Below, piece after piece: positions 19,604 through 41,950 of a stretch of DNA of 64,000 bases; the stretch's first letter is position 1; each line of letters begins with the position of its first letter. Both the position numbers and the translations under genes were made by a program. The notes beneath the pieces were generated by a model. It made no database searches. It saw nothing but the letters and a program-made list of their open reading frames with translations, and was not told the origin of the DNA. Source of the DNA: Umbilicaria muhlenbergii (taxonomy: Eukaryota; Ascomycota; Lecanoromycetes; Umbilicariales; Umbilicariaceae); contig KK106983.1 in NCBI GenBank assembly GCA_000611775.1, forward strand, positions 3,561,072 to 3,625,071, written 5' to 3'.

Positions 19604-21412
19604 CAGCATGATTGAAAAGGGTCAATTTTCACGGTCTGGCTTATTGGATACGTTGTCTTCTTGTTTCTATGCTTAGACGGGCCTATAGGGGTGGATGCAC
19701 TGAGCGATTTGTGGGATACCTTTGGCCATTGTGGAGGTGTTTATAGCGACATTAGCCTGATTGGAATTGTCAGCCTTTTCAGTATGTATCCAATAATAGA
19801 CTGTTACACTGTCACACCTGATTCACGTGCACTCTCCGATTTGACATGTCCGTCCTGTCCAGTCGAAGAGATACGTGGTGTTCTTATTCCTTATGCACGA
19901 CAAGTGCCCTCTGCTTCCGTCAATAATGCACCATGCATTTATTATTCATTGACAAGTGACCAAAGAGGACATCAGTGATGATGAATGCCGAGCCCACGGT
20001 GAGGTCGATGCGGCTCGCGACCTTTAATCCTGGTGGATTCGTCTGCCTTGCACTTGAGCAGTCATCCTGTCCAAGGCGGCGGGCAGTGCAAAACGCTTGA
20101 ACCCAAAATACCAACGGCGTGGAAGGCACGAGTTCTTTTCGGGTCCTTTCCAGGGGTGTGGTCCACGCCTATCGGGAACATGTCGCTCTGAACGAGGGTG
20201 AGCTCCAGCCTGTGACAGTGCGATCAAACATCGATGCGGGCTTGATCCGTTTGATCCGTTTGATCCGTGTAGACCACCGACCTGATCTTGTCCGACCCGA
20301 CTCCCCCATGTGGTCAGCAGTCGGACCAGTCCCCAAACAGACTAGACCCCTCGATAAGCTTCGGGCACTGCAATCTGAACCCGTAAGGCTGGACGGTCAG
20401 CATGAAGCACGAGCATGGAGCATGAAGCGGCCGCACTGCACTGCACCCTGCTCTATCTTGGGCAACACGACCTGAGGCCGGACAGATCGGAGAATTTCAT
20501 ATAATAACAGGTGCGCTTCAGCGAAGACTTCCAAGCTTCACGCTCCTCTCGTTCTTCAGCTCCAAGCTTTTCGTGCGTGGTACCGTCTCCATCACGCCAA
20601 CACCTGCGCGACCACCTCGACGGCCAGCTTAGCGGCTACATTTCCAGGTACGGCACACCTCCCGCCCGGTGCTCTTCCCACGTCCCATACCCTGGAAGCA
20701 TTTGCGCAGCCTCCAGGCTTAGACCTCTCTGCAAACCCTGAAACGTCTTCTCTACTGACCGTACGTCATGGCTGAAGAGCAGTAGCCCACTGTTTGTCGA
20801 CCTGTCCGAGGACACCTCTCTAAGCGCCCGATTCTGGGCAAAGCTCAGCGCGGCGCCCGTGCCTGTAACTTCGCATTACGGCGCGGTGGTGGCAAATTAC
20901 CACGGAGTCTGTCCAAACAACCCCCTTCGAAAATCCACTTCGGAAGCTGCGTGATATGTTACAATAAGAGGGAATATCTCCTGTTGCAACGGCGTCCTCT
21001 GCAAGCCCTAGACTGCAAGGAGCAGGGCAGATAGCCAGTCCATCCACGACAAATAAGCGCTGCCGACCTTCTCGTAATCTGCACTGCCACAACCTTCCAC
21101 GCTCCGACTGTATCTGGTACGTCCTCCTAAACCCTGAAACCTCTGGCAGCGGTGGTGAGCGGCAATTGACTTTCTACCTGACTCTCCAGGCAGACACATG
21201 GGGCACTGCTCATCTCGTCACAGTTACCACGCTACCCACGAGGTACCTCGACAGTCACGTACACTGCCACCAAAAGCCATTGTCCTCCTGCCATCACACC
21301 GAGAAAACACTCAAGCTGCCTCACTGCGCTTTCCCTTAGGGTTGGTGACACAGCCTCAGCCCTAGTGGTCCAAGCTTCCTGCCCGATCTAAGAAAAGCAT
21401 CAGGCCTGATCC
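19604..21412. other. Intergenic region upstream of CRZ1
   Basis: This 1.8 kb stretch holds the kelch-gene 3' flank and the CRZ1 promoter and leader. A perfect 9-bp triplication (TTGATCCGT) lies at 20242-20268. The last 800 bp are rich in C/T, as in many fungal 5' leaders. No gene recognised. Confidence 0.5.
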
Positions 21413-23853
21413 ATGATGGAAGAGCATCAACAGCAGCACCGTGGAAGGTCGTCTTCGGCCGGACATCACTCAAACCACAATCACAATATAAGCCACTCAC
21501 GATCGCCCCAGCGCTATCCAGATCACGCCGCTGCCCTCCGTCTAGACCCTGCCGTCAACCCATCTGCTTTCACCACTGGCGCATTCAATACAACACCCTT
21601 GACCTCGTCCGCAACTACTGAATCGCAATACAGTTACTCCACAGCGACATACATCGAAGCTCCTTATCAGACTCTGCAGTACGAGCAGCTTGGCTTGCAG
21701 GGTAACGGTCTCCAGGACCACGACCTCGGACACACATACAAACTAGAGAACCTTTCCCCGAATTCCCAACACAACACTTCCAACCTCAACCTCGAACAGT
21801 CAAGTCAGCAATTGACCCCCAACTTCCTTGATCCGAATGCGCCAATCGAGTTTGGTGGATATACTCAGAAACTCGACCATCTCGGAGCGCAAGATCAATC
21901 GTTCAACAACAATCTCATGCTTGACCCCCAACTTCAAGGGACCAGCCAACCATCACACCATACCATGAATCCGGCCGACCTAATGAGCAGCAACATGTCT
22001 TCACCCCATCTAGCCACTCCCCCGAACCTACTGCAACCCGAATCTCAACTATCACCAGCGCAACAATCTCCGTCGTCCGGGCCGTTTTTTTCCCCAGGAC
22101 ACTCACGACAAGCCTCATTAGATCCAAGTGCAGCTTATAGCCACGGACAAGGGCCACCGGACTGGACAGGTATGCTTACAGGAGCCAACTTTCAGACGCA
22201 TCGAAGAGCACCGTCAGAACACTCGGACGTCTCATCTTCAGTTGCGCCGTCCCCATTCCTTCAGCAGTCAGATAGCTTCGACACTTTCGATGGGAATTCG
22301 CCGATGTTAAACGCTCAACAGGACAATACTCTGTATCAAGATGCGCTTGGCATTGAGCAGTTCAGCCTCTCGGAACCTCAGCAGCAACAGCAGCAGCAGC
22401 AACAGCAGCACCAACAACAACGGATAACTCCGGCGCATAGTCCATACGCATCCCCACGTATTCCTCCACATGATGGTCTTGGTATCTCACAACAGGAAAA
22501 TTCTTTTATTCTAACGGGTGGTATGAACAACCATTTCAATGGAGGTGCGAGGCAAGACATTTACGGGAATCATACCATTCAGAATATACCAGACTACCAT
22601 CAACGCAATGGATCCAGTGATATGGGCCAGGCAACGCAGATGGCGCCACCAGAGATAAACGTGGAGTTCGCTCCACCGTCTCGCCAGCAAGTATTCGACC
22701 ACCCTAACCCTAAGGCAGACGCCGATGCATTAAGTCCGCCGGAGAGAAGTAAGACACTGTTCAGCAGGCCTTTTGATCGCTTCTAATACCTTTGACAGGG
22801 GGCAGACGCGACCGTGCAAGATCCGACCCTTTTGGTGCAAGCATATCCCGGCCAAGGACACCCTCCGATCCGTCATCTACCCTCTCCGTCGACCCAAATC
22901 ACCGCAACCGGTCCCTCTCTCCACTTGATGGCCCCTATCATCCCGGCTCTCGTAGCACCTCGCCAGCCGCCAGAACGGTGCGGCGCTCCTCCACATCCTC
23001 AATTAATCCCGACCGCGAATACCTCCTCGATCTCGCCGATCCCGGTCGGGCCCCGCCCGACCAAGGAAACCCCCGACGCGTGCAGAAGCACCCCGCCACC
23101 TTCCAATGCAACCTCTGCCCCAAGCGCTTCACGCGCGCCTACAACCTCCGCTCCCACCTGCGCACCCACACGGACGAACGCCCCTTCGTCTGCACCGTCT
23201 GCGGCAAGGCCTTCGCGCGCCAACACGACCGCAAGCGCCACGAGGGCCTCCACAGCGGCGAGAAGAAATTTGTCTGCCGCGGCGAACTCGGCGCCGGCGG
23301 CTCTTGGGGCTGCGGCCGCCGTTTCGCTCGCGCCGATGCCCTCGGTCGCCATTTCAGAAGCGAGGCTGGCCGTATTTGTATCAAACCGCTTCTTGATGAG
23401 GAGGCTATGGAACGCCAACGCTTGTGGGAGGAGCAGATGATGAATGCGCAGGCGCAGGGTATGCAAATGCCTGGGAATGGCGTCGGCGGCATGCATATGG
23501 ACTTGGGCGCCGGGATTGGCGGTGCGGCAGGAGGCAATGGGGGCATGCAACAGAACAACAACGGGGGCGGGTTCAGCTGGCCGGCGGCGCTACTGGCGCA
23601 ACATCCGGCGTTGCAGACTATCCAGTGGGATCAGTTGGGAAATGGTCACGGCGGCGTCGGTGATGATGGAGGGGATTTGAGCGGTAAGAGTACTTTCGAT
23701 GCGGGCAGCGGAGGGGATTATTTCGAGGAGGATGAGGAGGCCGGGTATGTTAGTGGGCCGGGGACGGGGTTTGGGCAGCAGCATCAGCAGCAGGCGGGGT
23801 GGGGGGGTTTGGGGGATGCGCAGGAGTGGGCGAGTGACTATGAGGGGAGGTAA
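21413..23853 (+). CDS. CRZ1: CRZ1/CrzA calcineurin-responsive C2H2 transcription factor
   Basis: Zinc-finger activator of Ca2+, cation and cell-wall stress genes, moved into the nucleus after dephosphorylation by calcineurin. The exons are 21413-22748 and 22799-23853, with a 50 bp intron in phase; the product is 796 residues. The long N-terminus is Gln/Ser/Pro-rich with a polyglutamine run near residue 325 and SP-rich phosphorylation-type segments. PEINVE (413-418) fits the PxIx[IV]x calcineurin-docking pattern. Two classical fingers follow ([21 protein letters not shown] and [21 protein letters not shown] type). A third, atypical one ends [19 protein letters not shown] and is followed by [12 protein letters not shown], a Crz1 hallmark. 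The C-terminus is Gly-rich. It is convergent with MLH3. Confidence 0.93.
22377..22420 (+). repeat. CAG/CAA tract encoding polyglutamine in CRZ1
   Basis: Near-continuous CAG and CAA codons interrupted by one CAC encode about 14 glutamines and one histidine. Confidence 0.85.
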
Positions 23854-24291
23854 GGGTGGTTGTGGAGAAGGAAGGCTGGGGGGGGGGCGTGAAGAGGAGG
23901 TTCTTTTCTTGCATGGTTTACTTTCCTTTAGATAGGGGTTTGGGGCTGGGTTTTGGTTTGGGGTTTGACGAAGCTGCAGCTTAGGACTTGATTGGGTTTT
24001 TTTCTCTCTTACATACGATACCATTCCTGTTTGCCTTCTGGGATGCCGATGGATGGACGGTTGGTCCTGGAGCTGGAGCATTTTGCGGTTGCAGGAGTTT
24101 GGGGCGTTGTCGTTGCTTCTGCGTTAGATATTGACGTCGTTTTGGAATCATGTTCGTGCGAGTCTGATTGTGCTGTTGGGTGTGTGACTATAGTACACCC
24201 CCTCGATCTCCTCAATCTCCACGCATCCGTCTTGATGACCCCCTTCGATTTTCCCCTGCCCCTGCCTCCAAATCCTCAAGTTCACTACTTC
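23854..24291. other. CRZ1 3' flank
   Basis: This is a G-rich then T/G-rich 3' flank that continues the strand asymmetry of the CRZ1 C-terminal coding part. No gene seen. Confidence 0.5.
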
Positions 24292-25092
24292 TCGAATCAA
24301 TCTGAATTAATTCAAACTGATTCGCAGCGCACGACGTCCGACGATAGAGCTTCCCGTCCAGATCAGGGTCAAAGATTCCCAATTCGGTTGTCACGATAGG
24401 CATTCTGCGTTGGACGTCGTCGCAGCGAATCGATCTAAACTGATCCATATCAGTTCCACCAAATCCCAGTGACGACGTCCGACCGCCAACCAGCCCCTTC
24501 CCAATCGGGCCTGAAGATTCCCATCGGACGTCGTTGCAAAAGCAAATCGATAGAAATTGCTTCAAATCGAGGCCCTCGGTTCTCGGCGTCCAGCACGACG
24601 TCCGACGCTACTCCCACCCAATCCCAATCAGGCCTAAAGACTCCCATCGGACGTCGTTGCGAAAACGACTCGACTTTCATTGCTTCAAATCGAGGCTCTC
24701 GATGCTCAGCAATGATGCGACGTCCGACAACAAAGCTCTCAGCCCTAATTTGGCAGTCCAAAAGTCAGCATCGGCGTCGGACGTCGGTGCAACGAACTGA
24801 ACTGAATTGATTCATATTAGTTCTCCGATTCTCTGATTCTCGGCGTCCAACACGACGTCCGACCACAAATCCTCCCGTCCCAATCAGGCCTGAAGATTCC
24901 CATCGGACGTCGTTGCGAAAAACGAATTTGACTCGACTTGATTCAAAAACGAGGCCCTCGATTCTCAGCAACGACGTCCGACGACATACTATCCCATCCC
25001 GATTAGGGGTGAAGATTCTCAATGCGGTTGAGGGGAGTGTTCCGCGTTGGACGTCGTGGCACGAACCAATCTGAACCGATTCGAATCAATTC
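24292..25092. repeat. Degenerate tandem array, about 125 bp period, with paired inverted GACGTC motifs
   Basis: Six units. The motif ACGACGTCC (or GACGTCC) begins at about 24331, 24472, 24595, 24719, 24852 and 24971. Its inverse GGACGTCGT (one copy ends CGG) begins at about 24412, 24526, 24649, 24779, 24905 and 25049. Spacings within each series are 114-144 bp. Between them lie shared words such as GAAGATTCCCATC, CGAGGCCCTCG and TGATTC-rich spacers. Both edges carry TCGAATCAAT (24292-24301 and 25081-25090). It sits between the 3' ends of two convergent genes. Confidence 0.9.
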
Positions 25093-25280
25093 CTTCCCGG
25101 GTGGCTTGAGATGAGCATAGAGAACGTCAGTACCACATAGACATGGTCGGAATGAGAATAAGACAGGCTAGCTGTTCCGGCATTCGCTCTTAAAGAAAGA
25201 TATCATCATCCGTTGAAGCTAGCAAGAGATCCCCATTTGAATCTGAGAGCGAGATAGCCAGGATGCCTCGTCCAGCCTCC

Positions 25281-28200
25281 TCACTCAATACCACCACCAT
25301 CACCATCTTCCTCTTCTTGCTCCTCTTCTTCCTCCTCCCCCTTACACCCGTCCTCTCCCCTCCTCCGCCCATCCCACCTCCCCCAAGCCTCCACAAACCC
25401 CCTCTCTCCCTCTCCCTCTCTCCTTCCCTCTCTCTTCCCGTCAACCCTCCCAACTCCAAGCCCAGTCCCAAACCCAACCCCAGCCCCAACCACCCCATCC
25501 CACCCCTCAGCCGACCCCAACTCCACCAGCGGCACCATACTCGGTCTGCCATGCGCACACTGAAACGGAAACTTGCACTTCGCCAACTTCCCCACCAAGA
25601 CCCTGCAGTCGTCGAAACTCAGTTCGTCGTTGAACATGATGGCGCTTCTGCAAGAGCGCGAGTTGAGCATGTCGAGGATACCAGGGGGGCAGGTGCTGAT
25701 GCGGTGGAGCCAATTGTGGGGATCGTCGACGGTTGAAGCGGTATATGAGAGATTGGATGTCTCAGGCGCCGATATGCGCGTGGCGCCACGACCACCACCA
25801 CCGGCCTCCTCGCGCTTCCACACTTGTGCTCTCAAGAGTTGGATCAGTTGTTTCGGGTCCAATCGACATCGCTCCGCTATACCCGGGGGAAGAGTCCTGA
25901 TGGTCATCTTGCATGTGTCTGAAGCTTCCAACGATGGAGGGCCGGTGCCTGGAGGGTTGAGGTCGTACAGGATACCCCAATAGGCGAAATGGGCTGCGTG
26001 GTTCTTGAAGAGTGTGTACTCACGCGCTGGGATTTGAACGATGAGCGGTTTCGCGAGCACGGTGGTCGCGATGCCAGACTTATGGCCTAGAGAGGAGCGA
26101 GGGCTATTTGGAAAGATAGCGGGCGGTTGACACAAGTCGTGCAGCAGGCCTTCGACTCTTACCCGCTCATCAGCTGCATGCTGATCAATGAGAACGAGAA
26201 CGGTAGGCTCATTTGCTCCTGAAGACACTGTTTCGTGATCCATACGCATCTTGACCAAGATGAACTTCTTGTCGACCTGTGCAATCACTTCCGCACACTT
26301 CAAGCCGTCTTTCGAGAGCTTGGCGGAAAACGATGTCGATGATTCTCTGAAAGCGGTTACAATGTCCATATGTGAACATCGGTGATGTCTTCCATGTAGT
26401 ATAGTGAAGGCTTCCAGGGTCGGGCCCTCGAAAGAGACTTGCGGTATGCTTTCCTCGGCTGGGCGAAAGGTGGGATTCTCCCAACTTCTCAAACAGTCAC
26501 CAACCCAAGAGCCTTCTCTTGGTGTCGCAAATGGATCAGAGAGGCTTCGAGTAATCTTTGCTCGTTTCCTGGGCCATTTACCTTGACCTCCGCCTAGACT
26601 AGGGCTATCTGTCTCGGTTGAGGCAGAGGACGGCCGCTGTGAGGATCGAGGAACTACCAACCCAGTGCGAGTACTGATCAGGAGTCGTTCCTTTGAAATT
26701 GGATTTATCCAGGACACTGTTTCTTCGGTATTAATTCCCGTCTCGTAACCCCTCTCGAGACTATCAGGTGATTCTGCAGCGGTGGCATAATGGACAGAGC
26801 CGCCAACAGAGGAATCACCCTGGGCTGTGGTGGGATCCTCAACGAAAGGATCGAGATCATTTCCAGTGTTCGTGTTATGGTCACAAAGAGCAGACTCCGG
26901 GTGACGAGCCGCATCCCTCGGCGCAGAACCATCGTTTATGGCAGGAGTCAGTCCTTCTCCTTCCACGCTATGGATCGAGACCGGATTGGCACTTCGTGTC
27001 ACCGGTTTGTTTGGTTCAAGTTTGCCGCAAATTTCGTCTGAGGTATTCTTCTTCCCACTCTTGATTCGACTCCAGCCATCTAGGCCTTCACCTGAGTGGT
27101 AGCTTTTACGTTGCGAAAAGCTAGGTAATACGACGTTGTTGCCAAACGTATCAATACAAGACCGCGATTCTTTTCTCGGGTTTGAGTTATGTCGCTTGAC
27201 AGTACTTCCAGCCTCTGACTCTACAAAATGGACCGATGGGCGGGAGTGATGCTTAGAGATCGGCTCACTCCCCTCATCAGCATCGCGACTTGGTATGTTC
27301 GGATACGATGGTGATGGGTTTAAGGTGGCCCTCGATCTAAGACGACTTGAAGAACTATTGGAACCTTCGGATCTTGTTGAATGCTTCTTCAAACGCCGCG
27401 CTCGAGGCCGAAAATGATACTCTTTCAGAAACCCCGTGGTCATCGCACTGAGAACCTCAATCGTCGATGAGAGGATGCTTCCTCCCTCCAATAAACCTTC
27501 CTCGCTCCTGTATTGCAAGTGTGAGGCGTCCTGAAGCTCAATCCGAATGTAGAACATTGGCCACCTATCAACCCCTTTCCCACCGCCTTTGAGTTGCTTA
27601 TGCGTAAAGCCATCCTGCTTGTAGCGCCGATCTTTACTTCTCCGATCGTTCTCCCTCTCATCCTCATCAGATAAGTCTTCTAAAACGCCGAAACTTGAAG
27701 CAGAAAAGATGCGATTAATCTCATCATAGAGGATCTTACCACTATTCTCAGAATTTAGTGACCTGATACCAAAGGAAATGAACTGCACGTGCTTTGTCGG
27801 CGCCGGTACGAGTGAGAAGGCGCCACGGATCGTCATAAGTATTGTCCGGGCTGAGGCCTTGACCCATGTATCTTGGCTGGGAGGCTCAATATAGGCAGCT
27901 TGGCAGAGAATACTTCCAATTGCTCTGAGATCGAACGAGTTTGTTTTGCGGAAACCCCTTTTACCATTATCCATGGATTCTTGCACTGTGACTGCGCCAC
28001 GTAAGTGGAACTTTTTAGTAACTGCAACGTCTCTCATAGTGATTGCGGTTGCAGGATCCCAGGCTAGTAGAAGTCCCACAATGCACCTCTTGAGGACGTC
28101 CCACTCCTTTGTATCATCTCGTCCATCGCTGCGAACTATAGCTCGCTGCTTGACCCTGACCGGCATATTCCCAAACAGATCTTGCACGCTGACTCTCGTT

Positions 28201-28699
28201 CCATGATCGTGATTCGAGAGGTGATGATGCGGAGGCGCAGGAACAAGCCTTGCAGCTGCCCGAGAGTGATGAAGTATTAGAGTATTTTGGGAACGATGAC
28301 CCTGGTGATGAGACGTGATAGTCAAGATGGACAAGGCAGCTAGGGAAGACAGAAACGTTCCGTTACTCCCATGTGCCTTCGCTAGGCTACCACTTTTCGA
28401 CGTATCTGCCAAGGTAAGTCGAACAGCCTGCCTGCAATAATTTGTGTCTTACGGTATGGCTTCCCAAGACCTCCGTTCTCTCCAAACTCTGACGGGGTGA
28501 TCCCGTACCCATCATCTTCTACCACACAGGATCCCCGGCTAAAGTCCACGATGATATCAACTTTGCGAGCCCCAGCATCGAGCGAGTTGGCAAGAAGTCC
28601 TAGAATAGCGATGCTCAGTGAAGGGATTGCAGTCGACGAGTTGATCTGTGCTGCCACTTCTGCGGGCAGAGGCTTGATCGGCGCTGACGGTTCAGGCAT
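25281..28699 (-). CDS. MLH3: MLH3, MutL-homologue mismatch repair / meiotic crossover endonuclease subunit
   Basis: Partner of MLH1 in the MutL-gamma nuclease. The exons are 28699-28453 and 28405-25281, joined across a 47 bp intron as GLGKPY-HTSKSGSL in phase; the product is 1123 residues. The N-terminal GHKL ATPase has the NSLDAGA motif and EDDGYGI. The glutamate expected four residues before the motif Asn is a glycine (AILGLLANSLDA). The transducer region holds TRVSVQDLFGNMPVR. A long disordered linker follows. The C-terminal endonuclease domain has LIDQHAADERVRVE (metal motif intact), SCRSAIMFND and CKFPFQCAHGRPSMVPL. After FVEAWGRW the protein ends in a Gly/Arg then Glu-rich tail of about 35 residues, unusual for the family. 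Confidence 0.93.
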
Positions 28700-41039: not shown

Positions 41040-41950
41040 GCCGGTAATTCTAAGCGCCGTCGAGAAGATATTCGACACGTGAAGATCTGCACGCAATATT
41101 GAACACAATCTAGAGGTATAGCTTCACTGCTGGGAAAGGTCCAGTGCATTTCGTATCCACACGAGGGAGTATCACCTATCATTCCGTTTCCTAGAAACCA
41201 ACCTTGGCTTCAATGGACTGACTCTTCTTTTTCACTCTGAGTGTGGACGACAAAGCAGATCACTGATGCAGGTCCTTCTATGCACTGCTTGAAAAGCTCT
41301 GCATCCGTAGTATACTTCTAAAAGGGAGTATTACCTGTCATTCTGTTCCCAGAGACTCGTTTTGACTTCAATCGATCTTCTCTTTTTTTCAATCTGAGTA
41401 TGGAGGCGGAGCAGATCCCTGCCACAGGTGCTTCTATGCAATGCTGAAAGCTCTGCATCTGTACTGCATTCACAGGAAGGCTTATCATCTGTCCTCCCGT
41501 TCACAGGAACCAACCTTGGCGTCAACAATGTACGAACTCTTCTTTTGGTCGCGAGTGTGGATGATGGAGCAGATCCGTGGTGCAGGTGGTTTCTATGCAC
41601 TGTCAGGAACGCTCTGCATCTGTACTATATTTCACAGGAAGATTTATCATCTGTCCTTCCGTTCCAAGTACCACTTTGAACTTTAATGGACGAACTCTTC
41701 CTTTTCACTCTGCGTATGGACGCGGATCAGATCCCTGCTACAAGTGCTTCTATGCAGTGGCGCTGCTCGGAAAGATCAAATGCAGACATATGCACAGGAG
41801 GCATTAGAGAGGTCCTGCATGGTCCATGCGGAACCTCCCTATTATCATCTGGCCCTCCATTCCCAGAACCAGCCGTGGCTTCAGTACACCAACTTCTTTT
41901 CCTCCCTCCGAGTATGGACGACGAATGTCATCTGCTCTGGAAAGCAGATT
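41040..41950. repeat. Degenerate tandem array, about 155 bp period
   Basis: Five clear units begin near 41175, 41334, 41486, 41648 and 41846 (spacings 159, 152, 162 and 198; the fourth carries extra bases). A more degenerate copy precedes them from about 41040. Shared words in order are CAT(C/T)TGTCC-TTCC, AACCAACCTTGGCTTCAA, GAACTCTTCTTTT, GAGTATGGACG, GCAGATCC and CTTCTATGCA-TGC, then AAGCTCTGCATCTGTA. Some units are multiples of three, so overlapping frames stay open, but I see no gene. Confidence 0.85.

What the first reader, a model, noticed from the sequence alone, without database searches (positions are those of the whole stretch)
24292..25092. Array of alternating inverted GACGTC motifs between CRZ1 and MLH3
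Twelve copies of a GACGTC core lie in about 0.73 kb, where one per 4 kb is expected by chance. They alternate strictly as ACGACGTCC and GGACGTCGT, giving six units of about 125 bp that could each fold as a hairpin. GACGTC is the core of CRE/ATF-type bZIP sites. The array sits between two 3' ends, so it is not an ordinary promoter. It could be a minisatellite, a nest of small inverted-repeat elements, or a binding platform or insulator. I know no described family that matches.
Basis: partly seen in the sequence, partly recalled or inferred. Interest (0 to 1): 0.75.

Follow-up and report, generated by a model that had tools for sequence, protein, structure and literature searches.

The report
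Genome-wide fungal composite DNA-site arrays
The repeated motif between two fungal genes is one member of a genome-wide family of clustered, two-part DNA sites, one part resembling a MADS-box (MCM1) site and the other unknown, that lie mostly at gene ends and may be landing pads for an undescribed chromosome-organising complex.

Summary
In detail: twelve GACGTC cores in 723 bp, strictly alternating, in six units between the stops of CRZ1 and MLH3. The CRE/bZIP reading fails: no TGACGTCA in the window, and the conserved block is asymmetric and longer (Box1, ACGACGTYCRAYG). A palindromic second block (Box2, CCNRATYNGGA) lies downstream, commonly 25-29 nt from the Box1 start. In all six window units two Box1 face inward on one shared Box2.

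The array is not isolated. The genome has 99 Box1 matches against 12 for the reversed pattern, at about 58 loci; 47 of 58 pieces share no match of 40 bp or more. Box2 follows Box1 in 55 of 86 sites (4 of 86 upstream) and in 17 of 31 loci fetched later (1 upstream; 12 of 26 without relatives of training loci). Box2 fits the published Mcm1 consensus. Neighbouring genes point their 3' ends at the sites on 22 of 27 sides (control 118 of 281).

Best reading: a composite binding platform for a MADS-box dimer plus an unknown partner; its role (boundary, terminator, origin) is inference. No description was found in the papers searched.

The parts
24331..24420 (.). Unit 1: Box1(+) 24331-24343, shared Box2 24377-24388, Box1(-) 24408-24420
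24472..24534 (.). Unit 2: Box1(+) 24472-24484, shared Box2 24499-24510, Box1(-) 24522-24534
24595..24657 (.). Unit 3: Box1(+) 24595-24607, shared Box2 24622-24633, Box1(-) 24645-24657
24717..24787 (.). Unit 4: Box1(+) 24717-24729 (two letters off) and Box1(-) 24775-24787 (one letter off), shared Box2 24743-24754
24852..24913 (.). Unit 5: Box1(+) 24852-24864, shared Box2 24878-24889, Box1(-) 24901-24913
24971..25057 (.). Unit 6: Box1(+) 24971-24983, shared Box2 24997-25008, Box1(-) 25045-25057
24293..24324 (.). Palindromic flank beside unit 1; such flanks are not a general feature of the family
   Evidence: I8; family check
21410..23853 (+). 3' part of the CRZ1-type zinc-finger gene (open frame 21410-22783 and a last exon with C2H2 fingers), stop 23851-23853; exon limits not determined
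   Evidence: name by recall
25281..28448 (-). MLH3 gene (MutL_C, HATPase_c_3), stop at 25281-25283

Best explanation
The array is six composite protein-binding sites. Each has a central palindromic Box2, read as the site of an MCM1/SRF-type MADS-box dimer, flanked on both sides by an inward-facing asymmetric Box1, read as the site of a partner protein. It belongs to a genome-wide family in which the composite (one or two Box1 per Box2) is multiplied by local tandem duplication, mostly in intergenic DNA at gene 3' ends. Shown: the two boxes, their spacing, the single shared Box2 of convergent pairs, the genome-wide excess of the degenerate 13-mer, the 3'-end bias. Partly shown: that Box1 is kept while units diverge (sites were chosen by Box1). 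Inferred: that proteins bind, that Box2 is a MADS site, and that the platform acts on chromosome organisation (transcription boundary or terminator, loop anchor, or replication start) rather than as an ordinary promoter switch.
For: Box1 excess: 99 against 12 for the reversed pattern; 30 exact 13-mers. Box2 found without prior by EM; score 192.9 against at most 43.4 in 12 shuffles, one site per locus (27) 56.7 against at most 34.7 in 12 shuffles, the shuffles with fewer starts. PWM >= 8 bits: 55 of 86 downstream, 4 of 86 upstream, 21 of 27 loci with at least one; loci fetched later 17 of 31 against 1 of 31, and 12 of 26 against 1 of 26 when five relatives of training loci are left out. Box2 palindromic (correlation 0.95, reached by 0.2% of column permutations); one shared Box2 in 10 of 10 convergent pairs, at >= 8 bits in 8, 6 of 6 in the window. 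Mcm1 consensus CCYWWWNNRG (passage in PMC11449735): 44 of 125 stretches downstream, 3 of 125 upstream. MCM1-like MADS exons at C1:10.16 Mb. 3'-end bias 22 of 27 sides against 118 of 281. Box1 identity within 15 arrays 0.81-1.00 in 14, 0.59 in one.
Against: No binding data. Sites were picked by Box1, so its conservation is partly built in. With one mismatch allowed the exact word is barely in excess (139 against 110 reversed). Within arrays Box2 is better kept than both flanks in only 9 of 15. The upstream stretches also yield a weaker motif above the shuffles (score 64.9). Positions 4 and 7 of Box2 are G and C about half the time, which a strict CC(A/T)6GG site does not show. MADS sites classically work in promoters (recalled). 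11 of 58 pieces fall into three groups of similar dispersed copies, which suggests copying of the element itself. No site of 8 bits at L012, L018, L031, L040, L044, L048 nor in 14 of 31 later loci. Sharing of Box2 in close convergent pairs is partly forced, since both scans cover the same DNA. The orientation control comes from one 64-kb window.
Confidence: 0.5

Rival explanations
1. A very short non-autonomous mobile element: Box1-Box2 is the recognition site of a transposase or other DNA-moving enzyme, and old copies keep only the boxes because these alone are needed for movement.
For: Three groups of dispersed similar copies, one with six loci on C1, C2 and C6; loci cluster along chromosomes (17 gaps under 100 kb against 8.7 expected, p about 0.0003, loci grouped by eye); Box1 strand relative to neighbouring genes is mixed (my tally).
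Against: 47 of 58 pieces share nothing of 40 bp or more; no general flanking inverted repeat; singletons keep the boxes in unrelated sequence; Box2 resembles a host MADS site. Target-site duplications were not tested.
Confidence: 0.22
2. Ordinary old minisatellites that happen to carry the same motif, without function.
For: Tandem units, divergence between copies, position in 3' intergenic DNA where insertion costs little.
Against: Same two boxes at many loci, Box1 99 against 12; drop of identity outside Box1 (partly by choice of sites); Box2 in loci fetched later, many of them singletons.
Confidence: 0.09
3. An RNA element (hairpin terminator, structured non-coding RNA or ribozyme-like repeat).
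For: Window units can fold back on themselves; position at 3' ends.
Against: No common fold in 43 sites on either strand; in 20 loci (63 kb) one Rfam hit only, tRNA below its gathering score, E 0.21; by my tally Box1 lies mainly on the strand of the 3'-facing gene at 9 loci and on the other at 5 (loci with two such genes or evenly mixed arrays left out).
Confidence: 0.06
4. A CRE/ATF bZIP binding platform, as first read.
For: GACGTC core in 12 of 12.
Against: No TGACGTCA in the window; the variant ACGACGTTCGACG breaks the core, yet is common in the family.
Confidence: 0.04

Closest known systems
Mcm1 composite operators of yeast (Mcm1 with MAT alpha2, alpha1, Fkh2, Yox1; recalled, not read here)
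   Same: Palindromic CC..GG MADS site with asymmetric partner sites on one or both sides.
   Different: Partner site ACGACGTYCRAYG is unlike any partner site I can recall; longer and variable spacing; tandem arrays; at 3' ends rather than promoters.
CTCF-type boundary sites (PMC10246852, passages)
   Same: Oriented asymmetric motif; convergent genes are proposed to mark loop boundaries in yeasts.
   Different: By that review CTCF is absent from fungi; no Hi-C or cohesin data here; different motif.
C. elegans pairing-centre motif arrays bound by ZIM/HIM-8 (recalled; only a search listing seen)
   Same: Short motif in dispersed arrays whose remaining sequence differs.
   Different: There, by recall, concentrated in one region per chromosome; here spread over seven contigs.
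Bacterial BIME/REP elements (start of abstract of PMC2817692)
   Same: Regularly spaced short elements in alternating orientation, extragenic.
   Different: Bacterial; here alternation is largely special to the window's array, and no link to a RAYT-like enzyme was tested.
CRE/ATF sites (recalled)
   Same: GACGTC core.
   Different: No TGACGTCA; conserved block asymmetric and bipartite.

Membership tests
Mcm1/MADS-box site (Box2) | Palindromic CC-N6-GG with A/T centre, consensus CCYWWWNNRG | tested here: met
   44 of 125 stretches downstream against 3 of 125 upstream, repeated copies and shared boxes counted; PWM palindromic, central A 0.82 and T 0.89; positions 4 and 7 only about half A/T
Mcm1/MADS-box site (Box2) | An SRF-type MADS protein in the genome | tested here: met
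   PF00319 at C1:10159637-10159886, translation of MCM1 type (type judged by recall)
Mcm1/MADS-box site (Box2) | Bound by Mcm1 in vivo | not testable with these tools
   no binding data
Mcm1 composite operator | Partner site beside the MADS site on one or both sides | tested here: met
   Box1 upstream of Box2 in 55 of 86 sites, on both sides in 10 of 10 convergent pairs, two of them with a weak Box2
Mcm1 composite operator | Lies in promoters | tested here: not met
   22 of 27 neighbouring coding sides have their 3' end toward the site
CRE/ATF bZIP site | TGACGTCA | tested here: not met
   none in the window; degenerate half-sites not scored
Minisatellite | Head-to-tail units recognisable as one tandem array | tested here: inconclusive
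   TRF finds none at 125 bp in the window; 78-80% repeats found
MITE or other dispersed element | Shared sequence and ends between copies | tested here: inconclusive
   47 of 58 pieces share no match of 40 bp, 11 fall in three groups; target-site duplications not tested
Structured RNA family | Conserved fold or Rfam match | tested here: not met
   20 loci; 43 sites
RIP-degraded repeat | TpA excess with CpA/TpG depletion | tested here: not met
   pooled TpA/ApT 0.67 (window 0.65); CpA+TpG ratio 1.02 against 1.16 in flanks and 1.25 in the window; three of 19 arrays (L023, L046, L047) cross both usual thresholds, which are recalled
rDNA terminator (Reb1/TTF-I type) | Same motif downstream of the 28S gene | not testable with these tools
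   LSU search gave no answer; no 5.8S match in the assembly

The most novel reading that the evidence does not exclude
A fungal counterpart of insulator sites: oriented arrays of a MADS-dimer site plus an unknown partner site, placed at gene 3' ends across all seven contigs, that fix transcription or loop boundaries (or replication starts) in a lineage without CTCF.
Probability: 0.2. Interest if true: 0.9.

Novelty: new variant of a known kind. Interest (0 to 1): 0.68.

Why it matters
A 2023 review states that CTCF is restricted to metazoans and that the precise nature of fungal boundary or insulator regions remains to be examined (PMC10246852, passages). A bipartite motif clustered at gene 3' ends over a whole fungal genome is a concrete candidate that can be tested by pull-down, ChIP and Hi-C. 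If it is instead a mobile-element recognition site, it is a very small one that keeps little beyond its boxes.

Tried and rejected
CRE/ATF platform: rejected on motif shape. Hairpin or RNA element: no common fold, no Rfam family. RIP relic: indices normal in the pool, although listed transposon matches in this genome mostly hold stops (one search scored 150 of 877 candidates). Transposase and reverse-transcriptase matches were listed genome-wide; no distance test to the arrays was made. Helical phasing of the Box1-Box2 distance: none (mean vector 0.29-0.30 at each of six periods from 9 to 12, 38 values). Flanking inverted repeats as a general rule: the strongest come from the window array (mostly its own opposed Box1) and L047. 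rDNA terminator link: not testable. An order-4 coding model over-fitted and was dropped for codon usage. The first EM run timed out before its shuffles and was repeated smaller. The clustering test was first run with guessed C5 and C7 lengths and repeated with the true ones (6 gaps under 20 kb against 1.9, 9 under 50 kb against 4.5, 17 under 100 kb against 8.7); two loci pairs only 3.5 and 7 kb apart were counted apart, which helps the result. Sister species: no fungal collection is held, so conservation between species is untested. Two PDB searches of other window proteins found nothing and a third only lipoate ligases; the species stayed unknown.

Papers: all ten searches used. The 13-mer and variants occur in two papers, by title unrelated (listing); the 9-mer ACGACGTCC in 203, of which 20 were listed and none is by title about such arrays; topic searches listed none whose title or abstract start describes them. 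Read in passages only: PMC10246852 (12 of 18 places), PMC1779545, PMC11449735.

Full report
Observation. The window (G000:C3:3561072-3625071 of a 34.8-Mb, seven-contig genome) has 30 GACGTC, 12 of them at 24333-25055, where shuffles predict about one per 3.9 kb. They alternate strictly. The interval 23854-25280 lies between the stop of a CRZ1-type zinc-finger gene (plus strand) and the stop of MLH3 (minus strand). That this is a filamentous ascomycete is inference from gene content, genome size and RIP-like transposon relics; the species is unknown to me.

Not a lone array. The search with the 806-bp array returned only itself, but its 13-letter word ACGACGTCCGACG occurs 30 times exactly, and the degenerate form ACGACGTYCRAYG 99 times against 12 for the reversed pattern. 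With one mismatch to the exact word the excess nearly vanishes (139 against 110), and the 9-mer GGACGTCGT is not in excess (286 against 645 reversed), so the allowed changes are specific. I grouped the 99 by eye into 58 loci on all seven contigs; they cluster along the chromosomes (17 neighbour gaps under 100 kb against 8.7 expected). Some are arrays, such as L012 (6 copies, most 196-200 bp apart), L029 (8), L030 (7), L045 and L046; others are singletons.

What is conserved. Alignment on Box1 shows the 13-mer, an A at +16 in 90% of 73 sites (20 of 31 in the later loci), and a second block. Expectation-maximisation on 86 downstream stretches (of 95 sites, those alike over 60% dropped) recovers CCCGATCGGGA, that is CCNRATYNGGA. 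It reaches 8 bits downstream in 55 of 86 sites and upstream in 4 of 86, and in at least one site of 21 of 27 loci; with one site per locus it exceeds all 12 shuffles, which had fewer starts. Upstream stretches give a weaker motif (score 64.9 against 192.9). In 31 loci fetched afterwards Box2 appears in 17, against 1 upstream. Five of these loci resemble training loci (L056, L059, L075, L077, L081); without them it is 12 of 26 against 1 of 26. About 12 chance Box1 hits are expected among the 99. The Box2 start is commonly 25-29 nt from the Box1 start, with further values at 18, 32-41 and 47-56 and no helical period.

Anatomy of the window. A sequence model of the two boxes (33 sites, 4 of them from this array) finds 12 elements in the window at E up to 1, all in this array. 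In each of the six units the plus and the minus Box1 pick the same central Box2, so a unit reads Box1> Box2 <Box1. The same holds in the other four convergent pairs seen (L011 twice, L030, L040), though Box2 is weak in L030 and L040. Because both scans cover the same short stretch, this means in effect that there is one good Box2 per pair. Elsewhere neighbours are mostly head-to-tail: 50 of 68 neighbour pairs in 27 loci have the same orientation.

Not one repeat family in the usual sense. Among 58 pieces compared, 47 share no match of 40 bp or more (blastn, E up to 1e-4) with another; three groups do: L013/L014/L027/L075/L077/L081, L030/L056/L059 and L065/L073. Within 15 arrays Box1 identity is 0.81-1.00 in 14 and 0.59 in L045, flank identity 0.24-0.91 and lowest in many-copy arrays; Box2 identity exceeds both flanks in 9 of 15. 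Because sites were chosen by Box1, its contrast is partly built in; the Box2 result is not.

Where the sites lie. With a codon-usage scan of 26 loci and the window, 20 of 27 sources gave a neighbouring coding segment and 7 gave none (L020, L036, L045, L046, L048, L049, L050, several of them short pieces). Of 27 sides called, 22 have the gene's 3' end toward the site and 5 the 5' end (one side each of L011, L018, L027, L043, L044); without the window 20 of 25. One segment overlapping the L041 array was left out. Random intergenic points of the window (275) give 118 of 281 sides. The control is one window only.

What Box2 may be. It is palindromic and matches the yeast Mcm1 consensus CCYWWWNNRG (passage in PMC11449735) in 44 of 125 downstream stretches against 3 of 125 upstream, repeated copies included; a table in PMC1779545 gives TTTCCTAATTAGGAAA and TTNCCNNNTNNGGAAA for Mcm1. 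The genome has an MCM1-like MADS gene at C1:10.16 Mb and another that looks RLM1/MEF2-like by recall. Positions 4 and 7 deviate from a strict MADS box. That Mcm1 acts with partner proteins whose sites flank its own, as with alpha2, is recalled knowledge; Box1 would be the site of such a partner, and I can name no protein for it.

Mechanism. I commit to a composite MADS-plus-partner binding platform (0.5). Its position at gene 3' ends suggests a boundary, terminator, loop-anchor or origin role; none of this is shown. The strongest rival is a minimal mobile element with enzyme-recognition boxes (0.22), for which the dispersed groups speak.

Novelty. None of the listings of my searches describes this motif or such arrays (open-access library only, listings capped). 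The kind, clustered sites for a sequence-specific protein, is known; this motif pair, its genome-wide arrangement and its location are new to me.

Noticed in passing
window 41164-41756: Tandem repeat of period 156-158 bp in two overlapping calls, about 2 copies each, 75-78% matches.
   Followed up: no
G000 genome-wide: Most listed DDE_1 and reverse-transcriptase matches hold TGA/TAA stops, as expected after RIP, while the pooled site arrays are not RIP-mutated.
   Followed up: partly
L047 572-750: Units flanked by a 13-14 bp inverted repeat (CAGCTAGACAACC / GGTTGTCTAGCTG) around Box1-Box2; could be the ends of a small mobile form.
   Followed up: partly
L013, L014, L027, L075, L077, L081: Six-locus dispersed subfamily of roughly 120-bp units on three contigs, the best place to look for target-site duplications.
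   Followed up: partly
L012 2598-2707: 11-bp head-to-tail repeat (AGAGGGATAGC) just beyond the array.
   Followed up: no
L012, L020, L030, L036, L049: A third word, TAGCTCA or close to it, often follows Box2; not tested statistically.
   Followed up: no
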